In this document: positions 15,401-39,782 of the stretch, piece after piece | Numbering within the stretch: the first letter of the stretch is position 1 | Layout of the letters: every line of letters begins with the position of its first letter | Origin: a virus | Length of the DNA stretch: 39,782 nucleotides | Strand: one strand, 5' to 3' | IMG/VR virus record: IMGVR_UViG_3300018876_000035 | Span: 1-39,782 of that record | The notes under the pieces: generated by a model | What the model saw: only the letters and a program-made list of their open reading frames with translations | Databases searched by the model: none | What the model was told of the DNA's origin: nothing | Program-made: the position numbers and the translations under genes

Positions 15401-18400
15401 TGGCTTCTTCGAACAGCCAACATGGTGGGAAGATGAGTACGGCACGGATTACAGTAGCACAAATACTGCTCTATGGAGCGACTTAGAAGAAGGTATTATT
15501 CGTCAAGGTATTAGAGAAAATATTTCCGATAATTTTTACCTAACTAACAATCCTTACAAACGAACAGGTCTTAGTGAAATTATCCCAGTGGATGCTGTAG
15601 GGGCGTTAAAAACTCCTAAAGAACTTGCAACTACAGGAGCAACTACTCAAACACTAACATGGACTAATTCACAGTTAGTGTCCAACGACGTAGTTGATAC
15701 TTTAAAAGACTACACTGATAACGGAACAAATAATCGTCCTAACGGAATTACTGCTACAGTTGATAGCGCAAATGTTTATATTACAAATAGCAATACTGAT
15801 AAGACTTATAAGATTTCTAATTACGGATTCGCTAACTTAACACTAGGTAACATTGTAAGCAACATAAGCTCGCTGTCTAGCACTACTATCGGCGTTACAG
15901 TAACTGGCACACCTATATTAAATCCAGCAAGCGGAACATGGAACGACGAAGGCAATTGGTCATACAATGCTGTATTTAGAAATGAAACGAATACAGACGG
16001 TGTATACACTATAGCACCAGAGAACGCCGGACTAACAGAATGGGACGAAGCAAATCATTCACCGATTGTAGGTTGGGCATTTGACGGCATTCCTATTTAC
16101 GGCCCATATGGTTACACTGAATATGCCGCAAACGGATCTATTATTGATGCGAACGTAACATCAATACAAAGTGCGTTTGAAGTAAGAAGCGGAACAAGAA
16201 GCACTGCTCCGTTTGGGTCTTTCACTGGAGAGTTTACACAAGATTATACAGCAAACGCTTCAGTTTACGGCACTCCTGGCTTTACAGGATCACCAGGACA
16301 ACCATTGTTAGCTGAATTTAATATGCGCTACGGTGTTACACCTGAGAGCCCGTCTACTCCTATTTACTTTTATGTAGCAACAGATGACTTCCCATTTATT
16401 ATAGGCGGAACAGAAAGTCTGTCTAATACTTACGAAGGACAGTTCTGGGCTGAAACATTAGATATAGAAAATAATAACTTAGGCACAGCAACAGACGACG
16501 GCACAACTTCCGCCTTAACTAGTACAAGTGCATATACATATGAAGTAGACGATACTGCAATAGATAATGCTTGGAGATTCGGAGACGGCGCACCTGTAGA
16601 GAATGTATGGAAATATTCTGTTGGTTATCCATTTGCTGTAGCAGAATCGTTACTACTAGCAAAACCAGGCAAGTTTGCTACATTGTTTGCTGACCCTACA
16701 AATGTAGAAGTTCCGTTGACTGAAAGATTTAAAACTATTAGTAAAGTTACAAGAAAGCCATTTAACTTTACTGATTCCGAAGATTTCCGTATACACGGAT
16801 CTGTCGATACGGCAACTAATGACATTGTGTATAACGCCGGTTATACACAGTTTATCCATAGCTGGTTAACTTACCAAAAGTATAATACTACTACAGACTT
16901 TGCAGATAAGGTACGAACAGTTAATATTAAATTAGCGCACAGAGTAGCAGGATTTACTGATAAAGATACACTAACAATAAGGACAGACCAAGTTAGCGCA
17001 ACGTCACTGTCTAGCAGTTTAATTATTCCAGACGAAAATATCGATGTTGTAGTACACAGCTCGCCGTATAAGAACAGAAATTTTTATACAGGCGTAATGG
17101 TACAGAAGGTAGAAGATGGATATAAAGTACGTGGGTACGATAAGAACTTTGGTTACTTTAACGTTCTAAGACGAAACTTCGGCGGCAAAACTACTGCAAT
17201 CGAAGTAGGCGGTCAGCCTGTGAGCTACACTAACTGGACCGTCGGAACAAGTTATAAACAAAATACTATTGTTTTCTACAATAACGCATTTTATAAAGCA
17301 CCGACAACTGTACCTAAAAGTGACACATTTATTGCGTCACTGTGGACAAGACTTGCTTCACTACCACAACAAGGCGCAGTAAAAGCAACTCTTTATTTAG
17401 ACAGCTTGCCGCAAGTAGATAGAGTAGAATACGAAACTGTATTTGAAACATATCAAGACGTAGTAAACTTCTTAATCTCATTAGGCGACTACCAAGAAGC
17501 ATTAGGTTACGATTTTGGCGAAGTAGACAACGACATTAACGATGTAAGAAACTGGGTATATACTACTAAACAGTTCTTGTTCTGGATAGCAGGCGGATGG
17601 GAAAACAACAACACCATCGAACTAAGTCCTCTAGCAAACAAAGTTAAATTTGTTAGCACCACAGGAATGATCTCTAAAATTAATAGAGTAGACAAAAATC
17701 AGTTTACACTTATAGATCAAAACAGTACAGCAATACAGCCTACTTCTTGTGAAATTATACGTGACGGCACAACTATAGAAATTGTTCCACCGGAAGGAAC
17801 ACAAATTTACGGAACAATGCTGTTCACTAAAGAAATAGAACATGCACTGATATTTGACAATGTTACAAACTTTAACGATACACTGTTTAACCCATTGTAC
17901 AACCAGTTGCAAAAACGACTAAGAATTAAAGGTAAGAAAACTGCTAACTGGAGCGGCTTGTTAAGTTCTGAAGGATTTATAATACAAGACGATGAACTTA
18001 GACCTAACCTAGACAACATGGCGCAGAGCTTAGGACGTTATCACGAACTTGGCTTTATCCCAGTTGAGAAACAAATATATCAAACTGCGCGTGGGTTGTT
18101 CGGATACAAAGAGCGTGCATACCTTAACGATTTAGAAATTGAGGACGACGACCAGTTTGAATTCTATAAAGGCATGCTACAAAATAAAGGTACTGTGCCT
18201 AGCTTACGAAAAATTGCTAAGAGTAATAAGATTGTTCAAGGTACTATGGATGTATTTGACGAATGGGCATTCCGAGTAGGAGACTTTGGCGACTTAGAAA
18301 ACGATCAAAGCATAGAATTAAAATTAGAAAAATCCGATGTTACACAAGATCCGCAGATGATTACTTTAGCGTTTCCTGAAGACACAACCGGTGTAGTTAG

Positions 18401-21400
18401 CGAAGTTAGAGTAATAGAAGCAAAACATACATATTACGAAGCGCCGGTGCTAGAAATTGCCGCACCGACTAATACGCCAGCTGTACAAGCAACTGCTACT
18501 ACTTCAATAGACGGTTCAGGCTTGTTATCTACAATTACTGTAACAAACGAAGGTAGCGGATATGCCGAACCTGTTAGAATAGAAATTATTGCAGGCGAGC
18601 TAGTTGTTGCAAATGTCAACACTACATTTAACCAGGCAGTAGCACAAAGTTCGGGCTTTATTTTAGAAAGCGACATTGCTTCCCTTGGCCTTGCAAATCT
18701 TATTATCACTAATAACAAGATAGGTGGCAATGTTACTGCCTCACTTGATGTGAGCGGTATCACTTCTTTTGCAAATATTGTAACATTAGTTAATGAAGAA
18801 GGTACTATTAATGCTAATATAACAGCGAGTTTTGTTGAAGCACAAAGAATTGTGGGCGGCAATGTTGTTAATCAATATACATTAAGATTGATAGGTGATG
18901 ACTTTACATTAACAGAAGATGGCAGTACTCTTGCAAATCTAAATATTACTGCTGGACGATATCAGCCTAGACAGCGTTATAGTATATTTGCTGTAGGCGA
19001 TCATCCAGTAACAGGAACAGGTGCTACAGAAGAAAGTAATATTTCTGTAACTGTAGACGGCACAGAAGTTCTTAGCGACAGCGGAAACAACTGGATTTAT
19101 GATGAAGGATCCCGACAAAGTATTCCTTTTGTAATCTCAGGATCAGGCGCAGTTGATGTAGACGGAGATATTGTTGTTAGCGGAGACGTTAATGTGCCGT
19201 TAGACACAACACTGGATGCAAACAATATAATTAACTACGAGGCAACTTTCACATATCCTCACGTAGATTTATATATTAACGGAACACAAATAGAAAATTC
19301 AGGATACGAGCAAAAGTATAGTTTAACTACAGGTCAATTAACTATTTACGATGTAGAGACTTTGCCGGAAGGACACTTACAGCAAGGCGCAAACATTTAT
19401 GTAGTTGAAAATCCAACTGTAGATTTTGAAAATGCGTACTTCGGTGATCTACCAGGCGCAACGTTAAGAATTAAGACAACTACTAATGATCGCATTGCGA
19501 TTATTACAGGGTCTAAGAGAATTTATGAAATTACAGAAGATATAAAAGGCGACGAAACTATTCTTATTGATATTGACGATACAGAAAGATTCCTGAAGCG
19601 TCCGATTAATGTTAAAGAATATTCATTATGGCCTACTATGACTGTAAACTACAACGGTGTTGTGGAGGATAGATACTATGACATTCCTAATGCAGGTTAT
19701 GTGAGTAGCTCAACTGTAGATTTCAGAAGCTTTGACATATTCAGTATGAAGGATATGTTCGGAGATGATATATTAACTTCACCGAGCGAAGACAATCTTG
19801 TGCATATTGCGGTTAGCGAAAATAGAGACTGGAACGTTTACAAACTTCGCGATGCAAACATGAGCGTGAGTTTTATAGAACAAGAAAGCAATGACGAAAC
19901 TACATATCTATATACTGATAAGTCATTATTTGATTATACTGATAGCAACCAAATTGGTAATGTAGACTTAGGTAGATTTTTAGATTATCACATTGTACTA
20001 AAGAACGGTGTAGTAAATGAAGAATTTGTAGTTTGGGTTAACGAACAAGTAGTAGATTCTAAACAGCTACGTTTAAGTAATATTAGCGGTGTAGTAATGA
20101 CCGAATCTACTATTACATCTATCGGACCGGAAGCAAATTCCATATTAGCTATTAGCAATATTACTCCGGGCGTAAGCGGATTTAGTACCGCAGAAGCAGA
20201 AGCAAACATAGACGGTGTAGGCACAGCGTTAATTACGTCGGACACTTTCCAATTACTCGACGGCGACATAGTAATGTTCACAAGTGCCGAAGGTAATACG
20301 AACCCATTACATGCTAATACTTACGCAGTATCTAATGTAACAACCGACACATTTACTATTAACGATCCTGCTTTAACTAGCAACGTAGATTTAGGTAACT
20401 TGATTGTAGCCTACTACGGCAAAACTACAATTGAAAGTGTAGGTCACGAATTAGGCACAGGCGAACTAGTTAAGATTGTAGCAGGCCCTTATAGTGGTAA
20501 CTACTTAGTAGAAAGCGCATCGGCAAACACATTTGTAATTGATGCTGTTTATCAATCAAGCGCAACTACTACAGGTAATATTTTACTAGATAGTATTACT
20601 ATTACAACTGGTAGCGCACACGGTATTGACACTAACTATGCCGGCAAAAAGATTGCAGTACATAACGCTGAACCAAGATACTATAACCAAGTTTACACAG
20701 TAGCATCGACTACGTCTAATACAATTACAGTTAGCGGAACCTTTGCGTATGCCGACGAAGCAAACGTAATGGCAAATGCGGTAGTAACTACATTAGACCA
20801 CGATATGTTCTACTTGAACAATAGTGCAATTAAGCTAGATAACATTAATAGTGTTGACGGAATAATTGATTCGTTTAATAGAGGCATGGAATTACGAAGA
20901 GGTTGGGTAACTGGCTCAGGTAGCTTCACTATGTCGATCCCAATGAACAAACGTACAATTTCATCACAAGGCGTAAGCGGATCACAAGTAGCAGGCAGTA
21001 TGCCTTATCAAACTGCTCTGCCGCAAAGTTCATTGAAGAATGTTAATATTACAGGTAGTCTTAAAGTTGATCCAGCTATAGTTTCTAAGGTAGGATTTGG
21101 CAACAATGTACAGAGTGCGTCGAGTACGCTAAATGCTTCACCATTTAATCCTACTATGGCAACAGGCAATAATCCTGGTAACTTTGATCCTTCGCAGTAT
21201 ACAGCTACAGATGTTACCGGTAGGTCACTATTTAATTACGGAATGATGGCAGGATTTAATCCTGGAAACTCCAACGGACAGTACTTGAACTTCTTGCCAG
21301 CAATAGGAACTAGCAATCAAAGTTACTTGTCTTGGATAAACATTCCTAAAATAACGCCGACAAACAGGTCAACAAATTCTACACCTAATAATACAGGCGC

Positions 21401-24400
21401 AGTAGTTATTAATCCTACTGCGGTTGTATCTGCGCCAAGACCAAAAGTGTGCGGAGACCCTGTTGGCACGCCTACAATTACAGGTGGCGGAGCAAACAAT
21501 GGTATATACGAAAAGTGCGAATTTGTCCAGCAAGCTAATACTTCCGTAGGCGTAATAGATACATGGTATTATAAGATTGTCGTTCCAGGTACTGTGAAAA
21601 TTATCTTTGATATGGGGCCAGAGTCTAGTGAAATACAAGTTTACCAAGGAAGCACAAGAGGTAGTAGCACGTACACTCTTGCGAGAACAACCGGCGGCAT
21701 AAGAAGAGCAACCTCCGACGAAAAACTTCTTTTAAATAAAGGAAAATCAGGAACATATTCTAGCACCAGCACAAGTTTGCCGGTCGATTGGTCTGTTGAT
21801 AACGCAGGGTATGTATTCAATTGTGGTGTTTTAGAATTCAAATATAACCCAGCCAAAGGCGAATGGTTGTATATTCATGTAGACAAAGGACCAAGTAGTG
21901 TAAGTTACAGGTATGCTGTATGCTATCCAAGTCCGACAGATACAGTAAATCCTAAGCTAAACATAAATGCCGGTCAGCCAGCAAGCATACCGCCATATAC
22001 CGGACAAGGCACACCGGATATGTCGGGCATTGCGCAGACACCTATTATACAGCCGTCCGTAATGCCTACAACAAAGAGAAAGAAAACAGGCAATGGTTCT
22101 TATACTTACTATAATACAAACGAGCAATGGAAATATGCTCCAGGTGGCGAATCAGGGTACTACCATAACTTTGGTGGATTTAGCCTTGCGCCTATGGCAG
22201 GATACAGCTTTATTCCTAGTACGTTTAGACGTACAGTAAAATCTACTACACCGGAAAACACAGGTAGGTATCAAGATTTATCTTCCGGAAGATATGTTAA
22301 CACATCTGTACAACGGGTGTCCGGCGGCGCAGTTGTGCCGTTGGCTGCAAAAGTACGAGCACCTATTAGCATTGATCCGAAACCGTTACGAGGATTAGAC
22401 CTTAGCAACGATCCATTGTATAAGACATTAGGCGATGTCGCCGGCGGTAAAGATATATATCTAAAATACCAGCCTAAGAAAATAGGAAGCAATTTATACA
22501 GCACTGATTTACAAAGTATCTCATCTGGACAAACAACAGGTAACACAGGCCCAGACTCAGTTATTACATTTAATGTTCTGCCTGGAGCACTTCCGTCTAC
22601 TGTGCCTGGAAGCCCTCTTGCTTCTACTGGCGAATATGCTGAAGATTTAATTCCAGCATACACATTAGACGCGGCTGACTCTCCTGTTAATATCGATGAC
22701 TTTGATTATAACAGAACACCGGTGATGACAATTCTTCCAAAAAGATTAGATGAGAACGGCGACTTAGTAGCCGCAGGACCAGTTGCGTATGCTCCTATAT
22801 CTAGACCAACACCGTCTGTTACTATTGGACTAAATGATTTAGTAGGCGCAAGACCGGGCGATGAAATTTTTATTAATGGACAAAGTATTACAATTGAAGC
22901 TAGTCCAGAAGGAACTTTAAAGAATCTTGAATGTTCGGTTGGATCGGGATACACAGCAATTAAAACTAGCAAGAAAGGTGACCCGGCTCTTAAACTAACA
23001 AGTTGTACTAATGCCCCTATTAACTTTAAGAACGGATGTAGAGGCGGAGTATACAAAGAAGTATTAGACTACCATATTGTAAAATCATTTAGTATGAGTA
23101 CTAGTGAGACGAGTAACACTGCGGTAATGCCTAGTGTGTCAGGATGGTACAACGGTACTACAGGTGACGTTGAAAGAACTGCTACATATACATTATACGA
23201 TGCAGAAGGTGTCTCAACAGGAACAGCTCCGCAAACTTCTACCACAACAACAGGCTCAATACTTTCGAGTGTAAACGAAACCACTCACACCGGCGGTAGC
23301 GGATATAGTGTAGGCGACAGGCTGCGTGTAGTTGGCGGCACACCTGTAGCATCTCCATTTGGCGAGGTTAAGAATATTTGTATTGGTAATACTGGTGCTA
23401 ATTATACCTCAGCGGCCAACGTTAAGGTATTCATAGGCGACGGTAGCACACCGGGCACTGGCGCAACTGTAAGCAGTGTTACATTAGATGAAAATGGCGG
23501 AATCGACAGTATTGTGATGGGTTCAGTTGGAGCAGGATACGATCCATCTCGTCCACCTACAGTTAGAATTATCGACGTAGGCGAAGCTTCGTCGAGCGAT
23601 ACTATTGTGCCAGCTAAATTACAAGCAGAGATACGTAGAAGAACAGATTCAGGCAGAATTGGTTATGGCTTGCCAGAACGACCAGCTAAATTTATTGTTT
23701 CTGGTGTATCTGCTACTGGTGCTATTACCGGCTTAACTGCAATCGACAGAGGTATTTACAAGGACTTCCCGAGCGACTTAACAACAGGTATTCCACTAGA
23801 ATACGACATAGTCAACTTAGGCGACGAATATGATGGTTCAATTCCTCCAACAGATTCAACTGGACTCGGAACATATGATCCGATTACTTACGAAAAGTTA
23901 GGTACTCCAGGCGGATACGATCCGATAAGAGGCAAGTATGAAGGCGGCACAGGTGCTAGGGTATTCTTAACAGCAAGAGAATTGCCAGACTGTTCTGAAA
24001 AGAGCGATGCACTAAGCAAATTACAAATTCCTATAACCCTTCCAGATATAAGCGTACCTTCGCACTTGGCAGATTTGCTAAATGCTAGCTTGATTGGTGC
24101 TGGCTATGATCCGAATGATATTAATTTTAGCATCGATCCTATTAACGATGATCTAGATTCCTTAGTGCTTAATGCTCCAGGGTTCGACGGAATAGAAGTA
24201 GGTGAGATGACTCCAGGCTTCCTAGATAAATTAGGACTACCGCCCGGCGACTATAACGCTTCTCTAACTGAATATGCGGCTGTGGGCACAGGCGACGGTA
24301 TGTCGATTTACGGAACATGTGGATTTGCAAATGATGTGTCTAGCATATTAGGTACTGCTACGACTGAATGTATTAGCGATTTATATCAGTATGAGCTACG

Positions 24401-27400
24401 TGCTCTTTCAGGCAACAATGTTACTTCTACTAAAGATAGTAAGAATGTGCAAGTACTTTATATGGAAAGCCAACGTTACTCGACTGAAGCAGACATTGCT
24501 ACTGCAAATGCGTCTTACACCGAAATCCCAGCTACTATTGCAGAGTTTGACAATATATGGATAGATGATTACAATAACACAGGATGGGCTTATTTAGAAA
24601 ATGGTGTAGTTAAACGCCAGCAAGAAGCATTAGTTGATCCTAAGTTTATTAAGAATACTATAATTTACGATAGCACAACAGGCAGAAAAGATTACGATTA
24701 TGATATTTGGGATCCGTTTAAAGGCGTGCTTCCTGCTATCATAGATGCAGAAATAAAATACGTTAGCAAGAGAGATCCGGTTGTATATAACGCAAGTCGA
24801 GCAATGTTCGGTAAAAAGAATGTTGGACAAGTATGGTGGGATACAAGCACTGTACGCTACAACTGGTACGAACAAGGCACAAACAGAGAGCGTTGGCTAA
24901 ACTGGGGCTCATCATTCCCAGGTAGTATCATCACAATATTTGAATGGGCAGAAAGTGTTAACCCACCGTTAGAATATGTTGGCACTGGTACGCCTAAAAA
25001 CGGCAGTGAATATATTATTGAACGTAGAAAAGATCCTGTTTCTAACGAATACAGAAACTACTATTACTTCTGGGTACAAAATGTAGAAGAAATTAGTAGT
25101 ACGGCGGCGACTGCGCAGAATAGAAAATTCAATGGATTGCAGATTGCTAGGTATCTTGCTGACCCGAACGGACAAGGTCTGAACACCATCGGCTTTATTA
25201 GTGCAGGACAAGAAAGCACAACAAATGCCGCTAGTTTTGTAATGTCAAATCTTACTAAGACTTTAAGAGAAGATGAACAAAATATACAAATTAACTTAAG
25301 TAGAAACTTAAATCCAATAGGATTAAAACATAGCTCTTGGAAATTAATAAGAGAAGGCAACAATGCACTACCTGAAGATTTAATTCTTAAATTAATCGAC
25401 AGCTTAACTGAAGTTGACTCAGCAGGCAATGTTGTTCCTGCTGATAACTTAAGTAATGTGGAAAGGTACGGTGTTAAATTTAGACCAAGACAGACTATGT
25501 TTAAGAATGCCAAAGAAGCAAGACGTGTACTACATTATGTCGTAAATGAAATATTTGCAGATACTAAACTTGAAACATTAAGCCCTGGCTGGAACGATAA
25601 CTTAACTAGCACAGAATATATAAAAACTATAAACTGGTATGCGGTTGATCGTATAGATAGCGCAACTAACGAAAAGATACGTTTTGATAATTCATACAAA
25701 GCATCGTTCACTGTATCTAGTGTAAAAGAACTTAACACATTAACAGGCGGTAATTTACCAGACGGTTCTGTGATTATGGTTCGAGCATTAACTACCGATA
25801 GATATCAGCTATGGCGTTATACTTCAAATGATGGCTTTACGTTAATTGCAATCGAAAACGAAACTATACGCCTCGCAGATACTGTATATACAGATGATTC
25901 GAACAGTACCATGCAAGAAGAACTTCGAGCATTGCTAGTATCTATTAGAGATACTATATTCAATGGCACAGAGATCCTTAACGAAATATTCTTTGCACTA
26001 GTTAAGTACGCAGTAGGTGAACAGCAACAACTAGACTGGGTATTTAAGACTTCTTATGTTTACATACAAAAAGAAGAAGAAGATTTAGTACAGCGAATAG
26101 GTTACAAGCCGGACAATTTTGACTCTGTGGTAGAGTACCTAAACGAAGTTAAACCGTATACAGCTAAAGTCAGAGAATACAAAGACGGAAAACGTGCCCC
26201 GCTTGAAGAAATTACAGATCAAATGATAAGCGACTATGATTTCCCGGCGTATGCAGACTCTACTATTGCCGCAAATAGAATACTAGATTTCGATAATGTA
26301 ATAGATCAAGAAATACTAGCAAGCGATCCAGATTACAATAAGATTAATAGTGTATTTGTTCCAGGACAAACCGAATGGGATGCTAACGCGCCTGTAAGGG
26401 TAGGAACTATTAACCTTACATTCGACAGAATAGACTGGAGACTAGTCGAAAATGATTTCGATGCTAATGCGTCTTCATATTCTCAAAGCATTGCAGTTAA
26501 CATTGCAAATCTAAATGCGGCAACAACTGAAGAAGTAAGTAATACATTATCTAATGCTTACTCGATGTCAAGTAGAATATTTAAGTTTGACCCAGACGTA
26601 CAGCTTGTCTTTAATGCGGAAATAGATGCATACTTTGGCGCTGGTTCTAGTAGTAACACTAGCATTACACAAAACAGTTCACTATTAGAACCTGCTATCG
26701 ACGCAGGTGCTCTTAACAATACTTTATATCTTGTTAAAGAAAAAGTAGGCGGCACATGGCAAGGTGAAGAACTTGACGGCGATTTATTTAATAGGGTTGT
26801 TCCTGGCAGTAACGGATTAATAGTTCGCGAGTGGTATGCGTGGGACACTGGCGAATGGGATAGTACTATAGGATTCGGCGCAGAATGGGATAGCGCGATT
26901 AGTGTAGAAAACTTCGAAGGGTTGTTCGACGGTAATAGCACATACAGAGAAGGCGGAATTACATACGATGGATTTGACGGCTTTAGCTTTAAGCACATGC
27001 TTTATGGCGAAGAACGCCCCGAAGAACTAGTTTACTTAAGTCCGCTAGAAAACTTTGTGATGCACGTAAGAACAGACACTTTCGCTTATTCCTATGACGG
27101 TAATGGAAATATTACTGGAATACAGGATGCGTTAAGCGTAGGACCATATGAGGCTAATATAAGCACAAGTGACGGTAACGCTACTGTAACAGTTACATCT
27201 GTGCTAGCAGTTCCGTTCTTAGACGATGGCGACAACGTAACACTAGCAGGAACGGCAAATACTATTGTAGACGGTTCTTACATTATATCTAATATAAATG
27301 TTTCAGCAAACACATTTACAATCGGCTTAGCTAACGTAGATGCAAACGTTGTAACTACTGCTGGCACTATAACATTAACAAGTGGCATCACAGCAGTACC

Positions 27401-27959
27401 GGTAGAATACTTAATACATTTAGATTTATTCGGCGGAACAGAATACTTACGAGTACTAGGCGACGGTTCAACATCGACAACTACAACTGCTAAAGTTGAG
27501 TACTGGGACGAGATAATAGAGGTACTTGATGCTTCTGTATTACCGGTTCCAAACGGATTTATCCCTGGTGTTATATGGTTGGATCACAGCGAACGAATAG
27601 AATATAGAAGAATAGACGGCAACACAATCCGGGATATAACAAGGGGCACACGAGGTACTACTATACCTAACAGTGTAGTTCACGAATATGACCCAGTCAC
27701 CGGTGAGATGATTAATACAACTGTGTGGAATGCGCATCCACCGGGTGTTAGCGTAATTGCAGGTTCAGGGGATAACGCAATTAATTTTGATAATGCTGGC
27801 GGAGATCCTGAGGATGCAATATGGATACGTTCAGATGCACTGAGCTTAACTGATACAAATACAAATAATGCCCCTATAGCAGGATTTATACAAGGCGGAT
27901 TATCACTATCAGTAGGGTGGGATAGTAAAGGCTGGGACACTGACTTGTTTGACAGTTAA
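12423..27959 (+). CDS. giant virion structural protein (baseplate wedge/fibre, 5,178 residues) in the gp7 position
   Basis: One uninterrupted frame of 5,178 residues, 39% of the window. The N-terminal ~1,075 residues look like an extended wedge protein (QEYYWVPAGP, DRLLEMYDHGTGAYG, EQPTWWEDEYGTDYSSTN). Residues about 1,080-1,345 hold a YHYH-like domain. Residues about 1,560-1,980 continue the wedge style (YKVRGYDKNFGYFNVLRRNF, then DFGEVDNDINDVRNW). Residues about 2,605-2,790 are a tandem array of small beta units. About 2,850-3,010 is low-complexity, rich in Gly, Asn, Ser and Pro, followed by a Cys-containing domain. Two GSGY-type modules lie near 2,040 and 3,650. The C-terminal ~1,150 residues return to wedge style (VGQVWWDTSTVRYNWYEQG, NWGSSFPGSIITIFEWAES). 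Position after gp6 suggests a gp7-like role carrying added fibre or host-contact domains. No catalytic motif was recognised. Separate gp7-gp12 genes are not seen in this window. Confidence 0.7.
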   Translation: MTKKIVNNLPVVLQTTAIRNFFESTVEQLYSTANTTPLKGFIGKRTGDDVGLSGAFIKEDTADRREYNLTPAVNTVNSVTGNSENLVFYDEFIDTLEIYGVDTTNHNTIFGSRYNVFMPPIDIDKFVNFQEYYWVPAGPTAITISATLADPINIELDVIGQATFSHSGTTLRDGMVVIFDDNGYSIPANATSKEYKAGKEYIVYGVGTSIQLIDKAASTNITRYGGSTADDKDYIVMERGAPNQNAWSRTNHWYHRNNFADAGDSLPAREYRAKRPIIEFDRLLEMYDHGTGAYGIATVAGPDHTVADIEGNATFIVDGYTLEDGDTILFPNESLANKVYLYTVSGVGASIVLTPSSTAIQAQETVVITDGINFIGREYIFNGSVYSYAQEKLSINQEPTFVLYDDAKNRLDNSGLYPNSTFVGSKIFNYQRGEGTSDTELGFPLVYTPFKSVSEITFENFIESERVSYTAFGSTASKEILGSYYYKRLETVEEYFSYWKPSGERNEQKIITTYEIDQLFVDQQTIVYDIGATPIVNPARPSGYDIIVKVNGDIRSDYIYRSPNKIQFNEFNVSAGDVIDIEVVSQEGITLENNSRYGLPISWRANPTNEEIEFVAEPEYISHFKRYIESQDGFQGDPLGSSNFTSTAKDVVFAKDIVQTDEDLILAAFLLDDQPHNIVDSIRFTAREYEKYKARLDKEITNYYNTFDTSSLTNEYILERVLRNLISFSIGKDVFNSTYILPFGDNYIQEDFDVADVAVVDYTLANYLDLGKIENGLLVYQVSAVTGSSTLLQVDNEYTITSTNPISIELNVSLGLGDTIVTKLYNENRDSAECPPTPSAMGIYPLFVPAIITDNSFETPIEVLRGHDGSRTPIKGDVRDDILLEYENRIYNTAKSEFRDISARPILNELRIRPGAFREETLGIRQFTDLLRNSYTNWVNANKVDPIVNEFYDATDEWTWNYRGTTDIPGYWKGFYEYYYDTVRPHTAPWEMLGFFEQPTWWEDEYGTDYSSTNTALWSDLEEGIIRQGIRENISDNFYLTNNPYKRTGLSEIIPVDAVGALKTPKELATTGATTQTLTWTNSQLVSNDVVDTLKDYTDNGTNNRPNGITATVDSANVYITNSNTDKTYKISNYGFANLTLGNIVSNISSLSSTTIGVTVTGTPILNPASGTWNDEGNWSYNAVFRNETNTDGVYTIAPENAGLTEWDEANHSPIVGWAFDGIPIYGPYGYTEYAANGSIIDANVTSIQSAFEVRSGTRSTAPFGSFTGEFTQDYTANASVYGTPGFTGSPGQPLLAEFNMRYGVTPESPSTPIYFYVATDDFPFIIGGTESLSNTYEGQFWAETLDIENNNLGTATDDGTTSALTSTSAYTYEVDDTAIDNAWRFGDGAPVENVWKYSVGYPFAVAESLLLAKPGKFATLFADPTNVEVPLTERFKTISKVTRKPFNFTDSEDFRIHGSVDTATNDIVYNAGYTQFIHSWLTYQKYNTTTDFADKVRTVNIKLAHRVAGFTDKDTLTIRTDQVSATSLSSSLIIPDENIDVVVHSSPYKNRNFYTGVMVQKVEDGYKVRGYDKNFGYFNVLRRNFGGKTTAIEVGGQPVSYTNWTVGTSYKQNTIVFYNNAFYKAPTTVPKSDTFIASLWTRLASLPQQGAVKATLYLDSLPQVDRVEYETVFETYQDVVNFLISLGDYQEALGYDFGEVDNDINDVRNWVYTTKQFLFWIAGGWENNNTIELSPLANKVKFVSTTGMISKINRVDKNQFTLIDQNSTAIQPTSCEIIRDGTTIEIVPPEGTQIYGTMLFTKEIEHALIFDNVTNFNDTLFNPLYNQLQKRLRIKGKKTANWSGLLSSEGFIIQDDELRPNLDNMAQSLGRYHELGFIPVEKQIYQTARGLFGYKERAYLNDLEIEDDDQFEFYKGMLQNKGTVPSLRKIAKSNKIVQGTMDVFDEWAFRVGDFGDLENDQSIELKLEKSDVTQDPQMITLAFPEDTTGVVSEVRVIEAKHTYYEAPVLEIAAPTNTPAVQATATTSIDGSGLLSTITVTNEGSGYAEPVRIEIIAGELVVANVNTTFNQAVAQSSGFILESDIASLGLANLIITNNKIGGNVTASLDVSGITSFANIVTLVNEEGTINANITASFVEAQRIVGGNVVNQYTLRLIGDDFTLTEDGSTLANLNITAGRYQPRQRYSIFAVGDHPVTGTGATEESNISVTVDGTEVLSDSGNNWIYDEGSRQSIPFVISGSGAVDVDGDIVVSGDVNVPLDTTLDANNIINYEATFTYPHVDLYINGTQIENSGYEQKYSLTTGQLTIYDVETLPEGHLQQGANIYVVENPTVDFENAYFGDLPGATLRIKTTTNDRIAIITGSKRIYEITEDIKGDETILIDIDDTERFLKRPINVKEYSLWPTMTVNYNGVVEDRYYDIPNAGYVSSSTVDFRSFDIFSMKDMFGDDILTSPSEDNLVHIAVSENRDWNVYKLRDANMSVSFIEQESNDETTYLYTDKSLFDYTDSNQIGNVDLGRFLDYHIVLKNGVVNEEFVVWVNEQVVDSKQLRLSNISGVVMTESTITSIGPEANSILAISNITPGVSGFSTAEAEANIDGVGTALITSDTFQLLDGDIVMFTSAEGNTNPLHANTYAVSNVTTDTFTINDPALTSNVDLGNLIVAYYGKTTIESVGHELGTGELVKIVAGPYSGNYLVESASANTFVIDAVYQSSATTTGNILLDSITITTGSAHGIDTNYAGKKIAVHNAEPRYYNQVYTVASTTSNTITVSGTFAYADEANVMANAVVTTLDHDMFYLNNSAIKLDNINSVDGIIDSFNRGMELRRGWVTGSGSFTMSIPMNKRTISSQGVSGSQVAGSMPYQTALPQSSLKNVNITGSLKVDPAIVSKVGFGNNVQSASSTLNASPFNPTMATGNNPGNFDPSQYTATDVTGRSLFNYGMMAGFNPGNSNGQYLNFLPAIGTSNQSYLSWINIPKITPTNRSTNSTPNNTGAVVINPTAVVSAPRPKVCGDPVGTPTITGGGANNGIYEKCEFVQQANTSVGVIDTWYYKIVVPGTVKIIFDMGPESSEIQVYQGSTRGSSTYTLARTTGGIRRATSDEKLLLNKGKSGTYSSTSTSLPVDWSVDNAGYVFNCGVLEFKYNPAKGEWLYIHVDKGPSSVSYRYAVCYPSPTDTVNPKLNINAGQPASIPPYTGQGTPDMSGIAQTPIIQPSVMPTTKRKKTGNGSYTYYNTNEQWKYAPGGESGYYHNFGGFSLAPMAGYSFIPSTFRRTVKSTTPENTGRYQDLSSGRYVNTSVQRVSGGAVVPLAAKVRAPISIDPKPLRGLDLSNDPLYKTLGDVAGGKDIYLKYQPKKIGSNLYSTDLQSISSGQTTGNTGPDSVITFNVLPGALPSTVPGSPLASTGEYAEDLIPAYTLDAADSPVNIDDFDYNRTPVMTILPKRLDENGDLVAAGPVAYAPISRPTPSVTIGLNDLVGARPGDEIFINGQSITIEASPEGTLKNLECSVGSGYTAIKTSKKGDPALKLTSCTNAPINFKNGCRGGVYKEVLDYHIVKSFSMSTSETSNTAVMPSVSGWYNGTTGDVERTATYTLYDAEGVSTGTAPQTSTTTTGSILSSVNETTHTGGSGYSVGDRLRVVGGTPVASPFGEVKNICIGNTGANYTSAANVKVFIGDGSTPGTGATVSSVTLDENGGIDSIVMGSVGAGYDPSRPPTVRIIDVGEASSSDTIVPAKLQAEIRRRTDSGRIGYGLPERPAKFIVSGVSATGAITGLTAIDRGIYKDFPSDLTTGIPLEYDIVNLGDEYDGSIPPTDSTGLGTYDPITYEKLGTPGGYDPIRGKYEGGTGARVFLTARELPDCSEKSDALSKLQIPITLPDISVPSHLADLLNASLIGAGYDPNDINFSIDPINDDLDSLVLNAPGFDGIEVGEMTPGFLDKLGLPPGDYNASLTEYAAVGTGDGMSIYGTCGFANDVSSILGTATTECISDLYQYELRALSGNNVTSTKDSKNVQVLYMESQRYSTEADIATANASYTEIPATIAEFDNIWIDDYNNTGWAYLENGVVKRQQEALVDPKFIKNTIIYDSTTGRKDYDYDIWDPFKGVLPAIIDAEIKYVSKRDPVVYNASRAMFGKKNVGQVWWDTSTVRYNWYEQGTNRERWLNWGSSFPGSIITIFEWAESVNPPLEYVGTGTPKNGSEYIIERRKDPVSNEYRNYYYFWVQNVEEISSTAATAQNRKFNGLQIARYLADPNGQGLNTIGFISAGQESTTNAASFVMSNLTKTLREDEQNIQINLSRNLNPIGLKHSSWKLIREGNNALPEDLILKLIDSLTEVDSAGNVVPADNLSNVERYGVKFRPRQTMFKNAKEARRVLHYVVNEIFADTKLETLSPGWNDNLTSTEYIKTINWYAVDRIDSATNEKIRFDNSYKASFTVSSVKELNTLTGGNLPDGSVIMVRALTTDRYQLWRYTSNDGFTLIAIENETIRLADTVYTDDSNSTMQEELRALLVSIRDTIFNGTEILNEIFFALVKYAVGEQQQLDWVFKTSYVYIQKEEEDLVQRIGYKPDNFDSVVEYLNEVKPYTAKVREYKDGKRAPLEEITDQMISDYDFPAYADSTIAANRILDFDNVIDQEILASDPDYNKINSVFVPGQTEWDANAPVRVGTINLTFDRIDWRLVENDFDANASSYSQSIAVNIANLNAATTEEVSNTLSNAYSMSSRIFKFDPDVQLVFNAEIDAYFGAGSSSNTSITQNSSLLEPAIDAGALNNTLYLVKEKVGGTWQGEELDGDLFNRVVPGSNGLIVREWYAWDTGEWDSTIGFGAEWDSAISVENFEGLFDGNSTYREGGITYDGFDGFSFKHMLYGEERPEELVYLSPLENFVMHVRTDTFAYSYDGNGNITGIQDALSVGPYEANISTSDGNATVTVTSVLAVPFLDDGDNVTLAGTANTIVDGSYIISNINVSANTFTIGLANVDANVVTTAGTITLTSGITAVPVEYLIHLDLFGGTEYLRVLGDGSTSTTTTAKVEYWDEIIEVLDASVLPVPNGFIPGVIWLDHSERIEYRRIDGNTIRDITRGTRGTTIPNSVVHEYDPVTGEMINTTVWNAHPPGVSVIAGSGDNAINFDNAGGDPEDAIWIRSDALSLTDTNTNNAPIAGFIQGGLSLSVGWDSKGWDTDLFDS
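15660..16440 (+). other. YHYH-like domain within the giant structural protein
   Basis: Residues about 1,080-1,340 of the giant protein. The signature SPIVGWAFDGIPIYGPYGY (about 1,213-1,231) matches the YHYH family core (AFDGFPIYG), and NMRYGVTPESPSTPIYFYVA followed by DDFPFIIGG (about 1,300-1,330) corresponds to the family's C-terminal strand. The family's name-giving Tyr-His-Tyr-His residues are not evident here. Such domains occur in secreted bacterial proteins and, from memory, in marine phage structural proteins. Their biochemical role is not settled. Confidence 0.6.
20230..20790 (+). repeat. tandem array of three small beta units in the giant protein
   Basis: Three successive units of about 50-65 residues share the plan of a polar strand, a turn, a Val/Ile-rich strand, then a Tyr-x-Val strand and a T-[FI]-[TV]-[IV] strand: TFQLLDGDIVMF with NTYAVSNVTTDTFTI; GHELGTGELVKIV with GNYLVESASANTFVI; AHGIDTNYAGKKIAV with QVYTVASTTSNTITV. 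Related single copies occur at about 12900-13080, 13330-13540 and 27150-27390. Likely small barrel or Ig-like spacer domains. Confidence 0.5.
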
Positions 27960-36286: not shown

Positions 36287-36321
36287 TGTCCCACGGAAAG
36301 GATAAAAAATGTTGGAACTAA
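36286..36321 (+). CDS. 11-residue bridging micro-ORF
   Basis: MSHGKDKKCWN. Its start overlaps the stop of the upstream gene (TAATG) and its end overlaps the dehydrogenase start by 13 bases. Most likely a coupling ORF; it could equally be chance. Confidence 0.3.
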   Translation: MSHGKDKKCWN

Positions 36322-37121
36322 GATTAGGCGTCATAGGCGCTGGTTTTGTTGGTGGTGCAGTTATCAACGCATTTAACAACAATACCGTTATGCTATCCAT
36401 AGTGGATACTAACGCAAAAAAAGCAACTTGTACTTTTGAAGAAATGATGCTAGAAGAACCTGAGGCAATTTTTGTATGCTTGCCTACTCCGTGTACTACG
36501 AAGGGCGATGTAAATGCTTCAGCAATATTCGAGGTGCTTGATAAATTACTAAAAGACTCATATAAAGGTGTAGTTATAATTAAAAGTACAATTACGCCAG
36601 ACAAAGTAAAAGAGATGAAACATAATTATCCTTTACATATTGTATACAATCCCGAATTTTTAACAGAAGCAAACGCACACGAAGATTTCAAACATCCATC
36701 TATGCAGATACTAGGCGGAGATTGGAAGGACTGCGAAGAAGCAGAACGCATATACTTACAACACAGCGATGTAAAGATTGTTCCTACTTTTAAAACAGAC
36801 ATTGTCACAGCTAGCTTATTAAAATATACAATTAATAGTTGGTTAGCTACAAAAGTTGTGTTTATGAATGAACTAAAAGAGTTACACGACAGAAGTGGCG
36901 CAACTAGTTCGTGGGAGCAGTTTAGCGATATGTTACGCAGGGATGAAAGAATCGGAGACAGTCATTTAAAAGTACCAGGACCTGATGGACAATACGGCTT
37001 CGGCGGTCATTGCTTTCCTAAAGATACTACAGCATTTTTAGAGTATGCGAGAAGTTTAGGAGCAGACATGGAAGTACTGAGGTATGCTGTCCGTAAGAAT
37101 AATTTATTACGTGGAAAATAA
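36309..37121 (+). CDS. shortened nucleotide-sugar (UDP-glucose-type) dehydrogenase, intein-free
   Basis: 270 residues, against about 400-450 in the family. Rossmann motif GVIGAGFVGG (residues 7-16), then IFVCLPTPCTTKGDVNAS and the STITPDKVK segment. Catalytic positions of UDP-glucose 6-dehydrogenase are all present: Glu in NPEFLTE, Lys172 and Asn176 in LLKYTINSW, and the thiohemiacetal Cys235 in GFGGHCFPKDT. Missing are part of the first domain's middle loops and the whole C-terminal UDP-binding Rossmann domain. It would oxidise a nucleotide sugar to the uronic acid using two NAD+, if the truncated form binds substrate. AAGGA lies 11 bases before the ATG. It ends the accessory operon; no terminator is visible after it. 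Confidence 0.75.
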   Translation: MLELRLGVIGAGFVGGAVINAFNNNTVMLSIVDTNAKKATCTFEEMMLEEPEAIFVCLPTPCTTKGDVNASAIFEVLDKLLKDSYKGVVIIKSTITPDKVKEMKHNYPLHIVYNPEFLTEANAHEDFKHPSMQILGGDWKDCEEAERIYLQHSDVKIVPTFKTDIVTASLLKYTINSWLATKVVFMNELKELHDRSGATSSWEQFSDMLRRDERIGDSHLKVPGPDGQYGFGGHCFPKDTTAFLEYARSLGADMEVLRYAVRKNNLLRGK

Positions 37122-37167: not shown

Positions 37168-37202
37168 CCTTAATCGTTCCTTAATCGGTTATTTGTTAAA
37201 TA
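37168..37202 (+). promoter_or_regulatory. Pho-box-like direct repeats and -10 box before the outer-membrane protein gene
   Basis: CCTTAATCG occurs twice, at 37168-37176 and 37179-37187, an 11-base period. Read as 8-mers, CTTAATCG-TTC-CTTAATCG follows the cyanobacterial Pho box plan (PyTTAAPyPy[T/A] repeats separated by 3 bases) except for the last base. TTTAATTA at 37147-37154 fits the same consensus two periods upstream. A possible -10, TAAATA, lies at 37197-37202. No -35 consensus is present, as expected for an activator-dependent promoter. Confidence 0.5.
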
Positions 37203-37204
37203 AC
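37188..37204 (+). repeat. perfect inverted repeat in the promoter/leader of the outer-membrane protein gene
   Basis: GTTATTT (37188-37194), GTT loop, AAATAAC (37198-37204): a 7-bp perfect hairpin directly after the Pho-box-like repeats and overlapping the possible -10 box. It could be an operator. There is no T tract, so it is not a terminator. Confidence 0.55.
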
Positions 37205-37225
37205 AGCAACCAATTAAGGAACACA

Positions 37226-37765
37226 ATGAAATATCTCGCAATTCTACTAGCCTTGTCGTTTTCAGCACACGCACAAGACGCGCACGAATACAATTACAAA
37301 GTCACTAAAGACAATTGGACAGCTACAGCACGACACCGTGAAGGAACCTGGCACACAGAGCTAGGTTACAGTTTTGACAAAATTGATGTAATGTATCGCT
37401 ATGCACGCCTCGGCACAAAGAACGAACACCGCATTAAATTCACCCAAGGACTAGCAAAATGGAATGGCTTCTCCTTGTCCCATAGAATGGAATACAGGCA
37501 GTTTGATGTTAAAGAAAACTACTGGCGTTACCGTTTTATTCTTGGCTACAAATACGACATAACACCTAATGCCCAATTTTGGGTTAAAATACAGCCACGC
37601 TGGTCCCTCAAAGACGAGCGCACAAAGTTTGATGCTCGAGACCAAATGGGCGTTAAATTTAAGTTTGGCAACCTTTCAATCAGCCCTTTTGCAGAACGTG
37701 GCGCCACTGACGATTACAAATTTGATCACAACGTATATGGTATACATACCGAATATAAGCTATAG
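37226..37765 (+). CDS. outer-membrane beta-barrel (porin-like) protein
   Basis: 179 residues from the ATG at 37226 (AAGGA 5 bases upstream), chosen over an in-frame ATG at 37193 because it gives a proper signal peptide: MKYLAILLALSFSAHA with cleavage likely after Ala16 (A-H-A/Q). The mature part is an unbroken series of amphipathic strands with alternating aromatic residues (WHTELGYSFDKIDVMYRYA, YWRYRFILGYKYDI, AQFWVKIQPRWSL, VKFKFGNLSISPFAE), enough for about 10-12 strands. It resembles small oligosaccharide porins such as the KdgM family in style, without a firm match. The C-terminal residue is Leu rather than the usual aromatic. Expected in the host outer membrane, for solute entry, superinfection block or lysis. 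It is monocistronic by appearance. Confidence 0.7.
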   Translation: MKYLAILLALSFSAHAQDAHEYNYKVTKDNWTATARHREGTWHTELGYSFDKIDVMYRYARLGTKNEHRIKFTQGLAKWNGFSLSHRMEYRQFDVKENYWRYRFILGYKYDITPNAQFWVKIQPRWSLKDERTKFDARDQMGVKFKFGNLSISPFAERGATDDYKFDHNVYGIHTEYKL

Positions 37766-37829: not shown

Positions 37830-39782
37830 ATGGCCTCAATCGGAAAAAAGCTCAGCGTGTCGTTTATCGGAGTTGGAAAACTCGGACAAGCCTGCGCAGA
37901 AATGGTTGCTGAAGTACATGATGTTGTCGGATACGATATTAACCCTCGAGCCCCTGAAAACTTCCCTATGGTTGCAACCTTAGCGGAAGCAGTAACAGGA
38001 AGGGATATCGTTTTTATTGCAGTGGAAACACCGCATGATCCGCAGTATGATGGAAAAGCGCCTACCAGCCATTTACCAAACAAAGACTTTGATTACAGTG
38101 TAGTCAAGACAGTACTTAAGCAGGTAAATGAAGTAGCAACAAAAAATCAATTAGTAGTGCTAATCAGCACAGTTTTACCTGGAACTACACGTAGTCAGTT
38201 TATTGACTTAATTCCAAACGCACGTTTCGTTTACAATCCATACCTAATTGCCATGGGCACTGTAAAGTGGGATATGGTTAATCCAGAGATGGTAATGATA
38301 GGAACAGAAGACGGGTCCGAAACCGGAGACGCAAAAGAGCTTGTAGATTTTTACAAGACTGTAATGCAGAACGATCCGGCTTATCATGTTGGTACATGGG
38401 ACGAATGCGAATGCCTAAAGGTATTTTATAATTGTTACTCAGATGATACTGAAGTTTTAACATCGTCTGGCTGGAAGTTATTTAAAGATGCGCAAGATGA
38501 CGACATGGTGTTCTCTCTTGATCCAGAAAGAATGCGTCCAGAGTGGGTAAAACCAGATAAATGGGCTTCGCGCGACTGGGATGATGAAATGATCCATTTT
38601 CATAGTTCTAAAGATGATATTTTGGTAACACCCGGTCATAACATGTTTGTTGGAAGAATGTCTACAAAAGATAAGTTACCAGGAAAGAATTATGGATATA
38701 CCTGGGAATTAGATTCAGCTGAAAATATCATTGAAAGAAGCGGGTTTGTATTTCAACGTTCTACTACTTGGCACAAATTAAAATCTGAGACGATAAACGT
38801 GCCTAATACTGATCTTGAGTTCAAGACTGAGGATTTTGTCCAGTTTATGGCTTGGTTTTTAGCTGAAGGTTGTATCTGCAATCAATCTGGTAGAATTATT
38901 GTATCGCAAGACAGAAATAAAAATTCTGAAAAATATGAGATGATAAATGAAACATTTTTGAAATTGTATGAAAATCATCCAGCCCAAGATAGGTTTTCTT
39001 TGTTGACAGGACCAACTGGAATTTCAGTACTGTGGCCAGAATTTTCTGAATATTTAAGAAAATTTGGAAAAAGTTTTGACAAATTTATTCCAGATGAAAT
39101 TAAGAATTTAGATGTGGATATGCTCCGTCTGTTTTTGGATACATATAATTTAGCAGATGGTTCAGCTCTGCATACCAGTCGATTTGATGGTTCAAAAGAA
39201 GACGATGATAAAAGATACAAATATTATGCTACAAGTTCGGACCAAATGGCCGCTGACATTGGTGAATTAATAATCAAAGTAGGAAGGTTCCCATCGTATA
39301 GAACTACTATTACAGATTTATCAAATAAGGAATGCCATTTAATATATGAACTAGTAAATAAAACTTCTTTATATCAGCGTTCGTCATCTGTTGGGTTGAA
39401 ATTTAATAAAGTGCAATATTCAGGGAAAGTATACTGTGCTATGTTACCTAAGAACCACATATTTTTGACAAGAAGAAACGGCAAGTGTACGTGGCAAGGG
39501 AACACATTTATCAGTGCAAAAGTTTCACTTGTTAACATGATACAAGACGTAGCAGAGAAGCAAGGCAATATCAACTCCGAGTGGGTATGCGATGCTCTTG
39601 CTAAATCAGATAGGCGCATTATGGGTCCTGCTTACATGAAACCAGGCATGGGTGACGGCGGCCACTGTCATCCTCGCGATAACATTGCGTTACGATATAT
39701 GGCAGAAAAATTAGACCTAGGGTACGACTTGTTTGATTCCATCATGCTTAGTAGAGAAGTACAAGCAGAAAACATGGCTAAG
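37830..39782 (+). CDS. nucleotide-sugar dehydrogenase precursor containing an intein (3' end beyond the window)
   Basis: The frame is open from the ATG at 37830 to the window end (651 codons). N-extein residues 1-201 carry FIGVGKLGQ (GxGxxG), ETPHDP and STVLPGTT of the UDP-glucose/GDP-mannose dehydrogenase family. The intein occupies 202-558. The C-extein resumes with TFISAKVSLVNMIQDVA and has the catalytic Cys613 (position 256 after splicing) and Asp617 in GGHCHPRDN. Lys197 and Asn201 in LKVFYN match the family's catalytic Lys and Asn. The Glu-containing NPEFLRE motif is replaced by NPYLIAM (Tyr138 region), so one general base is missing and the chemistry may differ. It is the second such enzyme in the window and has its own late promoter. 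The C-terminal part cannot be judged. Confidence 0.85.
   Translation, partial: MASIGKKLSVSFIGVGKLGQACAEMVAEVHDVVGYDINPRAPENFPMVATLAEAVTGRDIVFIAVETPHDPQYDGKAPTSHLPNKDFDYSVVKTVLKQVNEVATKNQLVVLISTVLPGTTRSQFIDLIPNARFVYNPYLIAMGTVKWDMVNPEMVMIGTEDGSETGDAKELVDFYKTVMQNDPAYHVGTWDECECLKVFYNCYSDDTEVLTSSGWKLFKDAQDDDMVFSLDPERMRPEWVKPDKWASRDWDDEMIHFHSSKDDILVTPGHNMFVGRMSTKDKLPGKNYGYTWELDSAENIIERSGFVFQRSTTWHKLKSETINVPNTDLEFKTEDFVQFMAWFLAEGCICNQSGRIIVSQDRNKNSEKYEMINETFLKLYENHPAQDRFSLLTGPTGISVLWPEFSEYLRKFGKSFDKFIPDEIKNLDVDMLRLFLDTYNLADGSALHTSRFDGSKEDDDKRYKYYATSSDQMAADIGELIIKVGRFPSYRTTITDLSNKECHLIYELVNKTSLYQRSSSVGLKFNKVQYSGKVYCAMLPKNHIFLTRRNGKCTWQGNTFISAKVSLVNMIQDVAEKQGNINSEWVCDALAKSDRRIMGPAYMKPGMGDGGHCHPRDNIALRYMAEKLDLGYDLFDSIMLSREVQAENMAK
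38433..39503 (+). mobile_element. intein (357 residues) with LAGLIDADG-type homing endonuclease domain
   Basis: Precursor residues 202-558. Block A: Cys202 in CYSDDTEVLTSSGWKLF. Block B: ILVTPGHNMF with T267 and H270. Endonuclease block C: WFLAEGCI (acidic residue E346); block E: YNLADGSA (D443), about 97 residues apart as in two-motif LAGLIDADG enzymes. Blocks F/G: GKVYCAMLPKNHIFLTRRNG, then KCTWQGN, ending in Asn558, with Thr559 as the +1 extein nucleophile. The penultimate residue is Gly, not the usual His, as in some other inteins. Spliced product joins FYN to TFISAK, restoring the dehydrogenase helix. The frame is intact and both endonuclease acidic residues are present, so splicing and homing both look possible. 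Confidence 0.93.

What the first reader, a model, noticed from the sequence alone, without database searches (positions are those of the whole stretch)
38433..39503. Full-length intein inserted at the active site of a phage nucleotide-sugar dehydrogenase
The sequence shows all splicing blocks (Cys1, TxxH, terminal Asn, +1 Thr) and two LAGLIDADG-like motifs in one open frame. The insertion is directly after Asn201, which aligns with the catalytic Asn of UDP-glucose dehydrogenases (four residues after the catalytic Lys). Inteins favour such conserved sites, but I do not know of a described phage intein in this enzyme. Splicing would act as an on/off switch for the enzyme.
Basis: partly seen in the sequence, partly recalled or inferred. 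Interest (0 to 1): 0.85.

Follow-up and report, generated by a model that had tools for sequence, protein, structure and literature searches.

The report
Homing intein at phage dehydrogenase active site
A gene for a sugar-processing enzyme in an uncultured aquatic phage carries a self-splicing, probably self-spreading protein insert (an intein) directly after a catalytic residue; it is an ordinary kind of intein, but at a site for which I found no earlier report in this enzyme.

Summary
Window 38433-39503 encodes a 357-aa insert in one open frame of an NDP-sugar dehydrogenase gene (37830 to the contig end). It has Cys1, T66xxH69, two LAGLIDADG-like motifs, terminal Asn357 and Thr +1. Dozens of phage homologues lack it and read ...KVFYN|TFISAK... 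across the junction. The residue before it, Asn201, aligns with Asn214 of GDP-mannose dehydrogenase. Pfam misses the insert, but its predicted structure matches endonuclease-bearing inteins (PI-PkoII Z 26.8; TliVMA Z 26.2) over its whole length. Two other IMG/VR phage lineages carry an allele at the same site (75% and 65% identical). The window's nearest extein relative lacks it: a patchy distribution, as homing elements have. Best reading: a class 1 intein with a LAGLIDADG homing endonuclease that splices by default. The proposed on/off switch has no support. Inteins in this enzyme were known from archaea; those I examined sit at a second site, before the catalytic Cys. In phages that second site also holds inteins, mostly split ones with an endonuclease-like ORF between the halves; one phage has both sites filled. 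New member of a known kind; splicing and homing remain untested.

The parts
37830..38432 (+). N-extein: NAD-binding half of the NDP-sugar dehydrogenase, ending with catalytic Lys197 (38418-38420) and Asn201 (38430-38432)
   Evidence: ORF; PF03721 E 6.6e-15; TIGR03026 E 3e-31; K197/N201 align with K210/N214 of 1mfz
38433..39503 (+). Intein, 357 aa, class 1 with LAGLIDADG homing endonuclease domain
38433..38471 (+). Splicing block A (Cys1, CYSDDTEVLTSSG)
   Evidence: Cys1 invariant in six relatives
38616..38648 (+). Splicing block B (DILVTPGHNMF; T66xxH69)
   Evidence: T66 and H69 invariant in six relatives
38790..39359 (+). LAGLIDADG homing-endonuclease domain (intein residues 120-309)
   Evidence: VIA-align to I-DmoI 4unb, Z 14.0, model residues 120-309
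38841..38870 (+). LAGLIDADG-like motif 1 (QFMAWFLAEG; acid E145)
   Evidence: sequence; E or D in all six relatives
39135..39161 (+). LAGLIDADG-like motif 2 (LDTYNLADG; acid D242)
   Evidence: sequence; D242 G243 invariant in six relatives
39417..39503 (+). Splicing blocks F and G (YSGKVYCAMLPKNHIFLTRRNGKCTWQGN; terminal Asn357, penultimate Gly356, Cys335 at what looks like position F:4)
39504..39782 (+). C-extein, 5' part only (Thr +1; catalytic Cys at 39666-39668; cut by contig end)
   Evidence: PF00984 E 6e-15; window end = record end
36309..37121 (+). Context: second, intein-free NDP-sugar dehydrogenase paralogue (270 aa) with the Lys/Asn and Cys motifs intact
   Evidence: PF00984 E 1.5e-17; phrog_9148 UDP-glucose dehydrogenase E 1.8e-45; sequence

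Best explanation
The 357 residues are a full-length class 1 intein with a LAGLIDADG homing endonuclease, living as a selfish mobile element in the NDP-sugar (UDP-glucose-type) dehydrogenase gene of a T4-like phage. In the precursor the active site is broken between catalytic Asn201 and the next residue, Thr. Cys1 attacks the Asn201-Cys1 bond, the N-extein passes to Thr +1, Asn357 cyclises, and the exteins join as ...KVFYN-TFISAK..., restoring the enzyme by default (inferred from class 1 inteins). The freed intein is expected to cut the intein-free allele of co-infecting phages at the conserved codons for KVFYN|TFISA and to be copied in by repair. Shown here: insertion, blocks, predicted fold, intein-free and intein-bearing alleles, patchy distribution. 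Inferred: splicing, DNA cleavage, homing.
For: Blocks A, B, F, G present; nucleophiles conserved across six relatives. AF2 model (pLDDT 75) matches endonuclease-bearing inteins across residues 1-357: PI-PkoII 2cw7 Z 26.8, TliVMA 7qss Z 26.2, PI-PfuI Z 21.5, PI-SceI Z about 19.8; the endonuclease part matches I-DmoI. Intein-free homologues: Synechococcus phage Bellamy, marine virus AG-345-E15, HTVC008M and hundreds of IMG/VR stretches. Same-site alleles L007/L008 and L105. Extein tree: the window's sister L009 is intein-free (100/97), L007 and L105 lie in another well-supported clade of mostly intein-free rows, at least 2 forced changes. Low pN against saturated or near-saturated pS in both splicing and endonuclease parts. 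Intein GC 35.0% against 42.5% and 43.7% in the exteins, below all 151 coding segments sampled from the window. The empty site is conserved at the fixed codon positions in 78 distinct alleles.
Against: No splicing or cleavage experiment. Pfam has no intein hit on the 357 aa, and NCBIfam intein_Nterm reaches only 14.5 bits (cut-off 24.5). Penultimate Gly instead of His, a less common variant. The C-extein is truncated by the contig end, so the full enzyme cannot be checked. Weak loops of the model (residues 109-114, 243-259, 294-296, 310-321) lie in or beside the endonuclease domain.
Confidence: 0.9

Rival explanations
1. Regulatory intein: splicing is conditional (for example redox-gated through Cys1 and Cys335 in block F) and switches the dehydrogenase on during infection.
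For: Inserted at a catalytic residue, so the precursor should be inactive. A Cys at the F:4-like position is present in five of six relatives, and mycobacterial DnaB inteins respond to stress (PMC6195587 abstract).
Against: Close relatives run the same enzyme without the intein; patchy distribution and a conserved endonuclease point to a parasite; an intein-free paralogue sits next door (36309-37121); [quoted passage not shown]
Confidence: 0.07
2. Degenerate intein: it no longer splices, or its endonuclease is dead, and the phage relies on the paralogue.
For: Penultimate Gly; paralogue present; endonuclease activity not tested.
Against: All splicing nucleophiles and both LAGLIDADG acids kept; low pN against saturated pS between three diverged alleles, over the endonuclease part as well; no frameshift or stop in any of the three.
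Confidence: 0.06
3. Assembly chimera: the insert was joined to the dehydrogenase gene by a metagenome assembly error.
For: Single contig, gene at the contig end, insert GC differs.
Against: Exact in-frame junctions and two further lineages with the same insertion.
Confidence: 0.01

Closest known systems
Archaeal UDP-glucose 6-dehydrogenase inteins (haloarchaeal 'udp' allele, PMC4071816; copies found here in the class of Methanocaldococcus; InBase 'Mja UDP GD' from memory)
   Same: Full-length LAGLIDADG inteins in the same enzyme family, at the active site
   Different: Those examined sit before the catalytic Cys (GYGGS|C...HN|CFPKD), not after the catalytic Asn; little sequence similarity to the window intein (best local E 0.003 to 0.03)
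Phage full-length inteins such as Corynebacterium phage P1201 thymidylate synthase gp22, Gordonia phage GMA6 TerL, a Prevotella Lak phage protein
   Same: Homologous over the whole intein (22-26% identity, pairwise E about 1e-14 to 1e-21), similar C[YF]..DTE.LT..GW start and R.(N/H)G...(S/W).GN-type end
   Different: Other host proteins and sites; P1201's is annotated only as 'hypothetical intein'
Fractured genes with split inteins (Dassa et al. 2009, cited in PMC7090010 and PMC5867893; paper itself not held)
   Same: The second site of this same phage enzyme shows split intein halves flanking an endonuclease-like ORF
   Different: The window intein is contiguous and at another site; I could not check whether that paper lists this enzyme
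PI-PkoII, TliVMA, PI-SceI (solved endonuclease-bearing inteins)
   Same: Same two-domain fold, Z 18.3 to 26.8
   Different: Other hosts; 13-18% identity

Membership tests
Class 1 intein | N-terminal Cys or Ser nucleophile | tested here: met
   Cys1, invariant in six relatives
Class 1 intein | Block B TxxH | tested here: met
   T66-P-G-H69
Class 1 intein | C-terminal Asn and Cys/Ser/Thr at +1 | tested here: met
   Asn357, Thr +1
Class 1 intein | Penultimate His (usual, not obligatory) | tested here: not met
   Gly356; Gly or Ser in relatives; splicing without it is cited in PMC4031507, so this does not exclude membership
Class 1 intein | HINT fold | tested here: met
   AF2 model against solved inteins, Z up to 26.8 over residues 1-357
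Class 1 intein | Uninterrupted homologues lacking exactly the insert | tested here: met
Class 1 intein | Autocatalytic splicing | not testable with these tools
   needs expression
LAGLIDADG homing endonuclease | Two LAGLIDADG helices each ending in an acid | tested here: met
   E145, D242; I-DmoI match, Z 14.0
LAGLIDADG homing endonuclease | Cleaves the intein-free allele | not testable with these tools
   needs purified protein
Class 3 intein | No nucleophile at position 1, Cys at F:4 used instead | tested here: not met
   Cys1 present although Cys335 occupies the F:4-like position
Archaeal UGDH intein allele (site before catalytic Cys) | Same insertion site | tested here: not met
   Archaeal HN|CFPKD against window FYN|C...GN|TFIS
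NDP-sugar dehydrogenase (extein) | NAD-binding plus central domain with Lys/Asn/Cys catalytic residues | tested here: met
   PF03721, PF00984 over cut-off; K197, N201 and the Cys align
NDP-sugar dehydrogenase (extein) | UDP/GDP-binding C-terminal domain | not testable with these tools
   Beyond the contig end

The most novel reading that the evidence does not exclude
The phage dehydrogenase is matured in a controlled way by active-site inteins: one after the catalytic Asn and, in some phages, a split one whose +1 nucleophile is itself the catalytic Cys, so that enzyme activity is gated by splicing conditions in the infected cell. The anatomy (two sites, both at catalytic residues, both filled in contig 3300010316_000005) is shown; the gating is not.
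Probability: 0.06. Interest if true: 0.8.

Novelty: new member of a known kind. Interest (0 to 1): 0.42.

Why it matters
It adds an insertion site, apparently unreported, to an enzyme already known to attract inteins, and shows that in T4-like aquatic phages the dehydrogenase active site is invaded at two catalytic positions: by a contiguous LAGLIDADG intein (this one) and by a set of split, contiguous and mini inteins at the catalytic Cys. That gives a natural set for asking why homing elements choose catalytic codons, and offers candidate natural split inteins whose +1 residue is a catalytic Cys, to be tested for trans-splicing.

Tried and rejected
Pfam and phmmer against PDB on the intein gave nothing; only the predicted fold placed it. 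Megablast of 14.8 kb against the phage collection: no near relative. Pattern search for more same-site inteins (E-C-[LI]-K-V-F-Y-N-C) found only the two contigs of the L007 lineage and L105; a different sequence at the site or a Ser1 intein would be missed. The intein tree among the three alleles is unresolved (47/2), so I do not claim which allele moved; by identity the window-L007 inteins are closer (75%) than their exteins (69%) while L007-L105 is the reverse (68% against 78%), suggestive only. GC3 does not separate intein from genome. L006 is an intein-like segment in a helicase-type protein, not this allele. First attempts to set a centre genome by locus id failed and were redone through handles. 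Foldseek on the ORF between the split intein halves: nothing significant (best E 0.1). A first version of the flanking-site script failed on a faulty pattern and was rerun.

Full report
Check of the observation. The frame 37830-39782 (+) is open for 651 codons with no stop before the record ends; the window is the complete 39,782-base virus record. Residues 202-558 (38433-39503) are the 357-aa insert. The exteins are those of an NDP-sugar dehydrogenase: PF03721 and PF00984 above their cut-offs, TIGR03026 E 3e-31 (below that model's full-length cut-off, as expected for a truncated, interrupted protein). phmmer against PDB aligns K197 and N201 with K210 and N214 of GDP-mannose dehydrogenase 1mfz, and the C-extein Cys with its GGSCLPKD motif. 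The catalytic roles of those residues are established knowledge that I recall, not tested here.

The insert is real and discrete. tblastn of the precursor found phage homologues that lack it: Synechococcus phage Bellamy and marine virus AG-345-E15 (70%), Pelagibacter phage HTVC008M (57%). In IMG/VR at least 599 stretches encode a relative; most of the 80 fetched match the exteins without the insert, the best at over 80% identity. A direct alignment shows L009 and L001 running ...KVFY|NTFISAK... (L001: KIFY|NTFISAK) where the window, L007 and L105 have the insert. Because Asn stands at both ends, the gap could be slid by one residue; the chemistry (Cys first, Asn last) fixes it as Asn201|Cys1 and Asn357|Thr.

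Relatives of the insert. Same-site alleles exist in two further lineages: L007/L008 (contigs 3300010316_000005 and 3300017697_000150, identical over 10.6 kb; 74.8% identity to the window intein) and L105 (3300037285_000249; 65%). More distant inteins lie in other phage proteins: P1201 thymidylate synthase (annotated 'contains hypothetical intein'), GMA6 TerL, a Lak phage protein, a Nitratidesulfovibrio phage protein, and L005 at 33%. So it belongs to a broad phage intein group.

Fold. Pfam does not recognise the insert and NCBIfam's intein N-terminal model is below cut-off, so I tested the fold. An AF2 model from six relatives (pLDDT 75, pTM 0.64) has TliVMA, PhoVMA and PI-SceI as top Foldseek hits (E 3.5e-17 to 1e-9) and, by VIA-align, PI-PkoII (2cw7; that name from memory) Z 26.8, TliVMA Z 26.2, PI-PfuI Z 21.5 over residues 1-357, and I-DmoI Z 14 over 120-309. 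This is a HINT domain with a two-motif LAGLIDADG nuclease in it.

Mobility. In the extein tree (65 rows) the window's sister is intein-free L009 (100/97) and its clade of 29 has 28 free rows (100/99), while L007 and L105 lie in another clade with 17 free rows; presence/absence needs three changes, at least two forced by starred branches. Gain and loss cannot be told apart by that count. The insert is AT-richer (35.0% GC) than the exteins (42.5, 43.7%) and than every one of 151 sampled coding segments of the window; the L007 and L105 inteins show the same direction. Synonymous sites are saturated or near it while pN is 0.16 to 0.25 between the three inteins, in the endonuclease part too, so both parts look constrained. 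The codons around the junction are invariant at their fixed positions in 78 distinct empty alleles; that follows from the conserved protein motif and is what makes it a good homing target. Preference of inteins for conserved sites is established (PMC2814812).

Known inteins in this enzyme. PMC4071816 lists a 'udp' allele in haloarchaeal UDP-glucose 6-dehydrogenase. Six of 36 in the first have PF00984 split over an ORF of 895-931 aa; the three read out carry the intein as GYGGS|CFHPDE...HN|CFPKD. Four in the second (ORFs of 890-938 aa) end in HN|CFPKD likewise, with the Asn region unbroken; whether any of them is a haloarchaeon is not told. Hence the archaeal inteins examined all sit before the catalytic Cys, and the window's site after the catalytic Asn is distinct.

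A second site in phages. Searching IMG/VR for HN|CHPRDNI gave 46 stretches, at least 18 distinct C-terminal sequences. At this catalytic-Cys site the phage dehydrogenase carries several architectures: contiguous full-length inteins (L114; L126/L132), one contiguous mini-intein (L149), and most often a split intein: the upstream gene ends in a stop about 103-107 residues into the intein, and a separate short ORF restarts with the C-intein and the rest of the enzyme. Between the halves lies, in most, an ORF of about 270 aa (L007:7178-7987) with E...PD...DxK and two CxxC pairs conserved, PF05367 at 29.6 bits against a cut-off of 29.1 in L007 and an 'endonuclease' PHROG. It is probably a PD-(D/E)XK-type nuclease; its predicted fold found no significant match. 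L121 and relatives are split with no ORF between. L117 has a different ORF there, GIY-YIG-like by eye only (Pfam none). L007 carries both the window-type intein and the split one, so its dehydrogenase would need cis- and trans-splicing. This resembles the published 'fractured gene' arrangement; I could not read that paper, so I cannot say whether this enzyme is in it.

Mechanism and switch. The default reading is a constitutively splicing, homing parasite. The precursor cannot hold a finished active site, but inteins commonly interrupt functional sites; no result here shows regulated splicing. A Cys in block F, kept in five of six relatives, leaves redox gating possible but untested. An intein-free paralogue in the same contig (36309-37121) weakens any claim that splicing alone controls the pathway.

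Limits. Names of most archaeal genomes are hidden; IMG/VR scans used exact short patterns and can miss diverged cases; literature was limited to open-licence papers; nothing was tested at the bench.

Noticed in passing
L007:6813-8118 (also L062, L063, L074, L108, L112, L115, L119, L130, L133 and others): Split intein at the catalytic Cys of the same phage dehydrogenase (GDGGG|C ... stop ... ORF ... HN|CHPRDN), usually with an endonuclease-like ORF of about 270 aa between the halves; at least 18 distinct C-terminal sequences in IMG/VR.
   Followed up: partly
L007 (contig IMGVR_UViG_3300010316_000005): One dehydrogenase gene with both active-site positions occupied: contiguous LAGLIDADG intein after the catalytic Asn and split intein before the catalytic Cys.
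   Followed up: partly
L114, L126/L132, L149, L121: Other architectures at the same catalytic-Cys site: contiguous full-length inteins, a contiguous mini-intein, and a split intein without an intervening ORF.
   Followed up: partly
window 36309-37121: Second, intein-free NDP-sugar dehydrogenase of 270 aa directly upstream; L020 shows a similar tandem arrangement.
   Followed up: partly
window 12423-27959: A single 5178-aa ORF, presumably a giant virion or tail protein, in a T4-like baseplate gene cluster (the product of 8249-12415 is 39% identical to baseplate wedge proteins of Pseudomonas jumbo phages).
   Followed up: no
window 37193-37765: 190-aa ORF with a weak outer-membrane beta-barrel match (PF13505, below cut-off) between the two dehydrogenase genes; odd for a phage.
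   Followed up: no
L117, between the two intein halves (upstream of the C-half at 2657): The ORF between split intein halves is of another type here (starts AYIYKWTYKPTGMWYIGSRT, GIY-YIG-like by eye), suggesting that different homing nucleases have been placed in the same kind of split intein.
   Followed up: no
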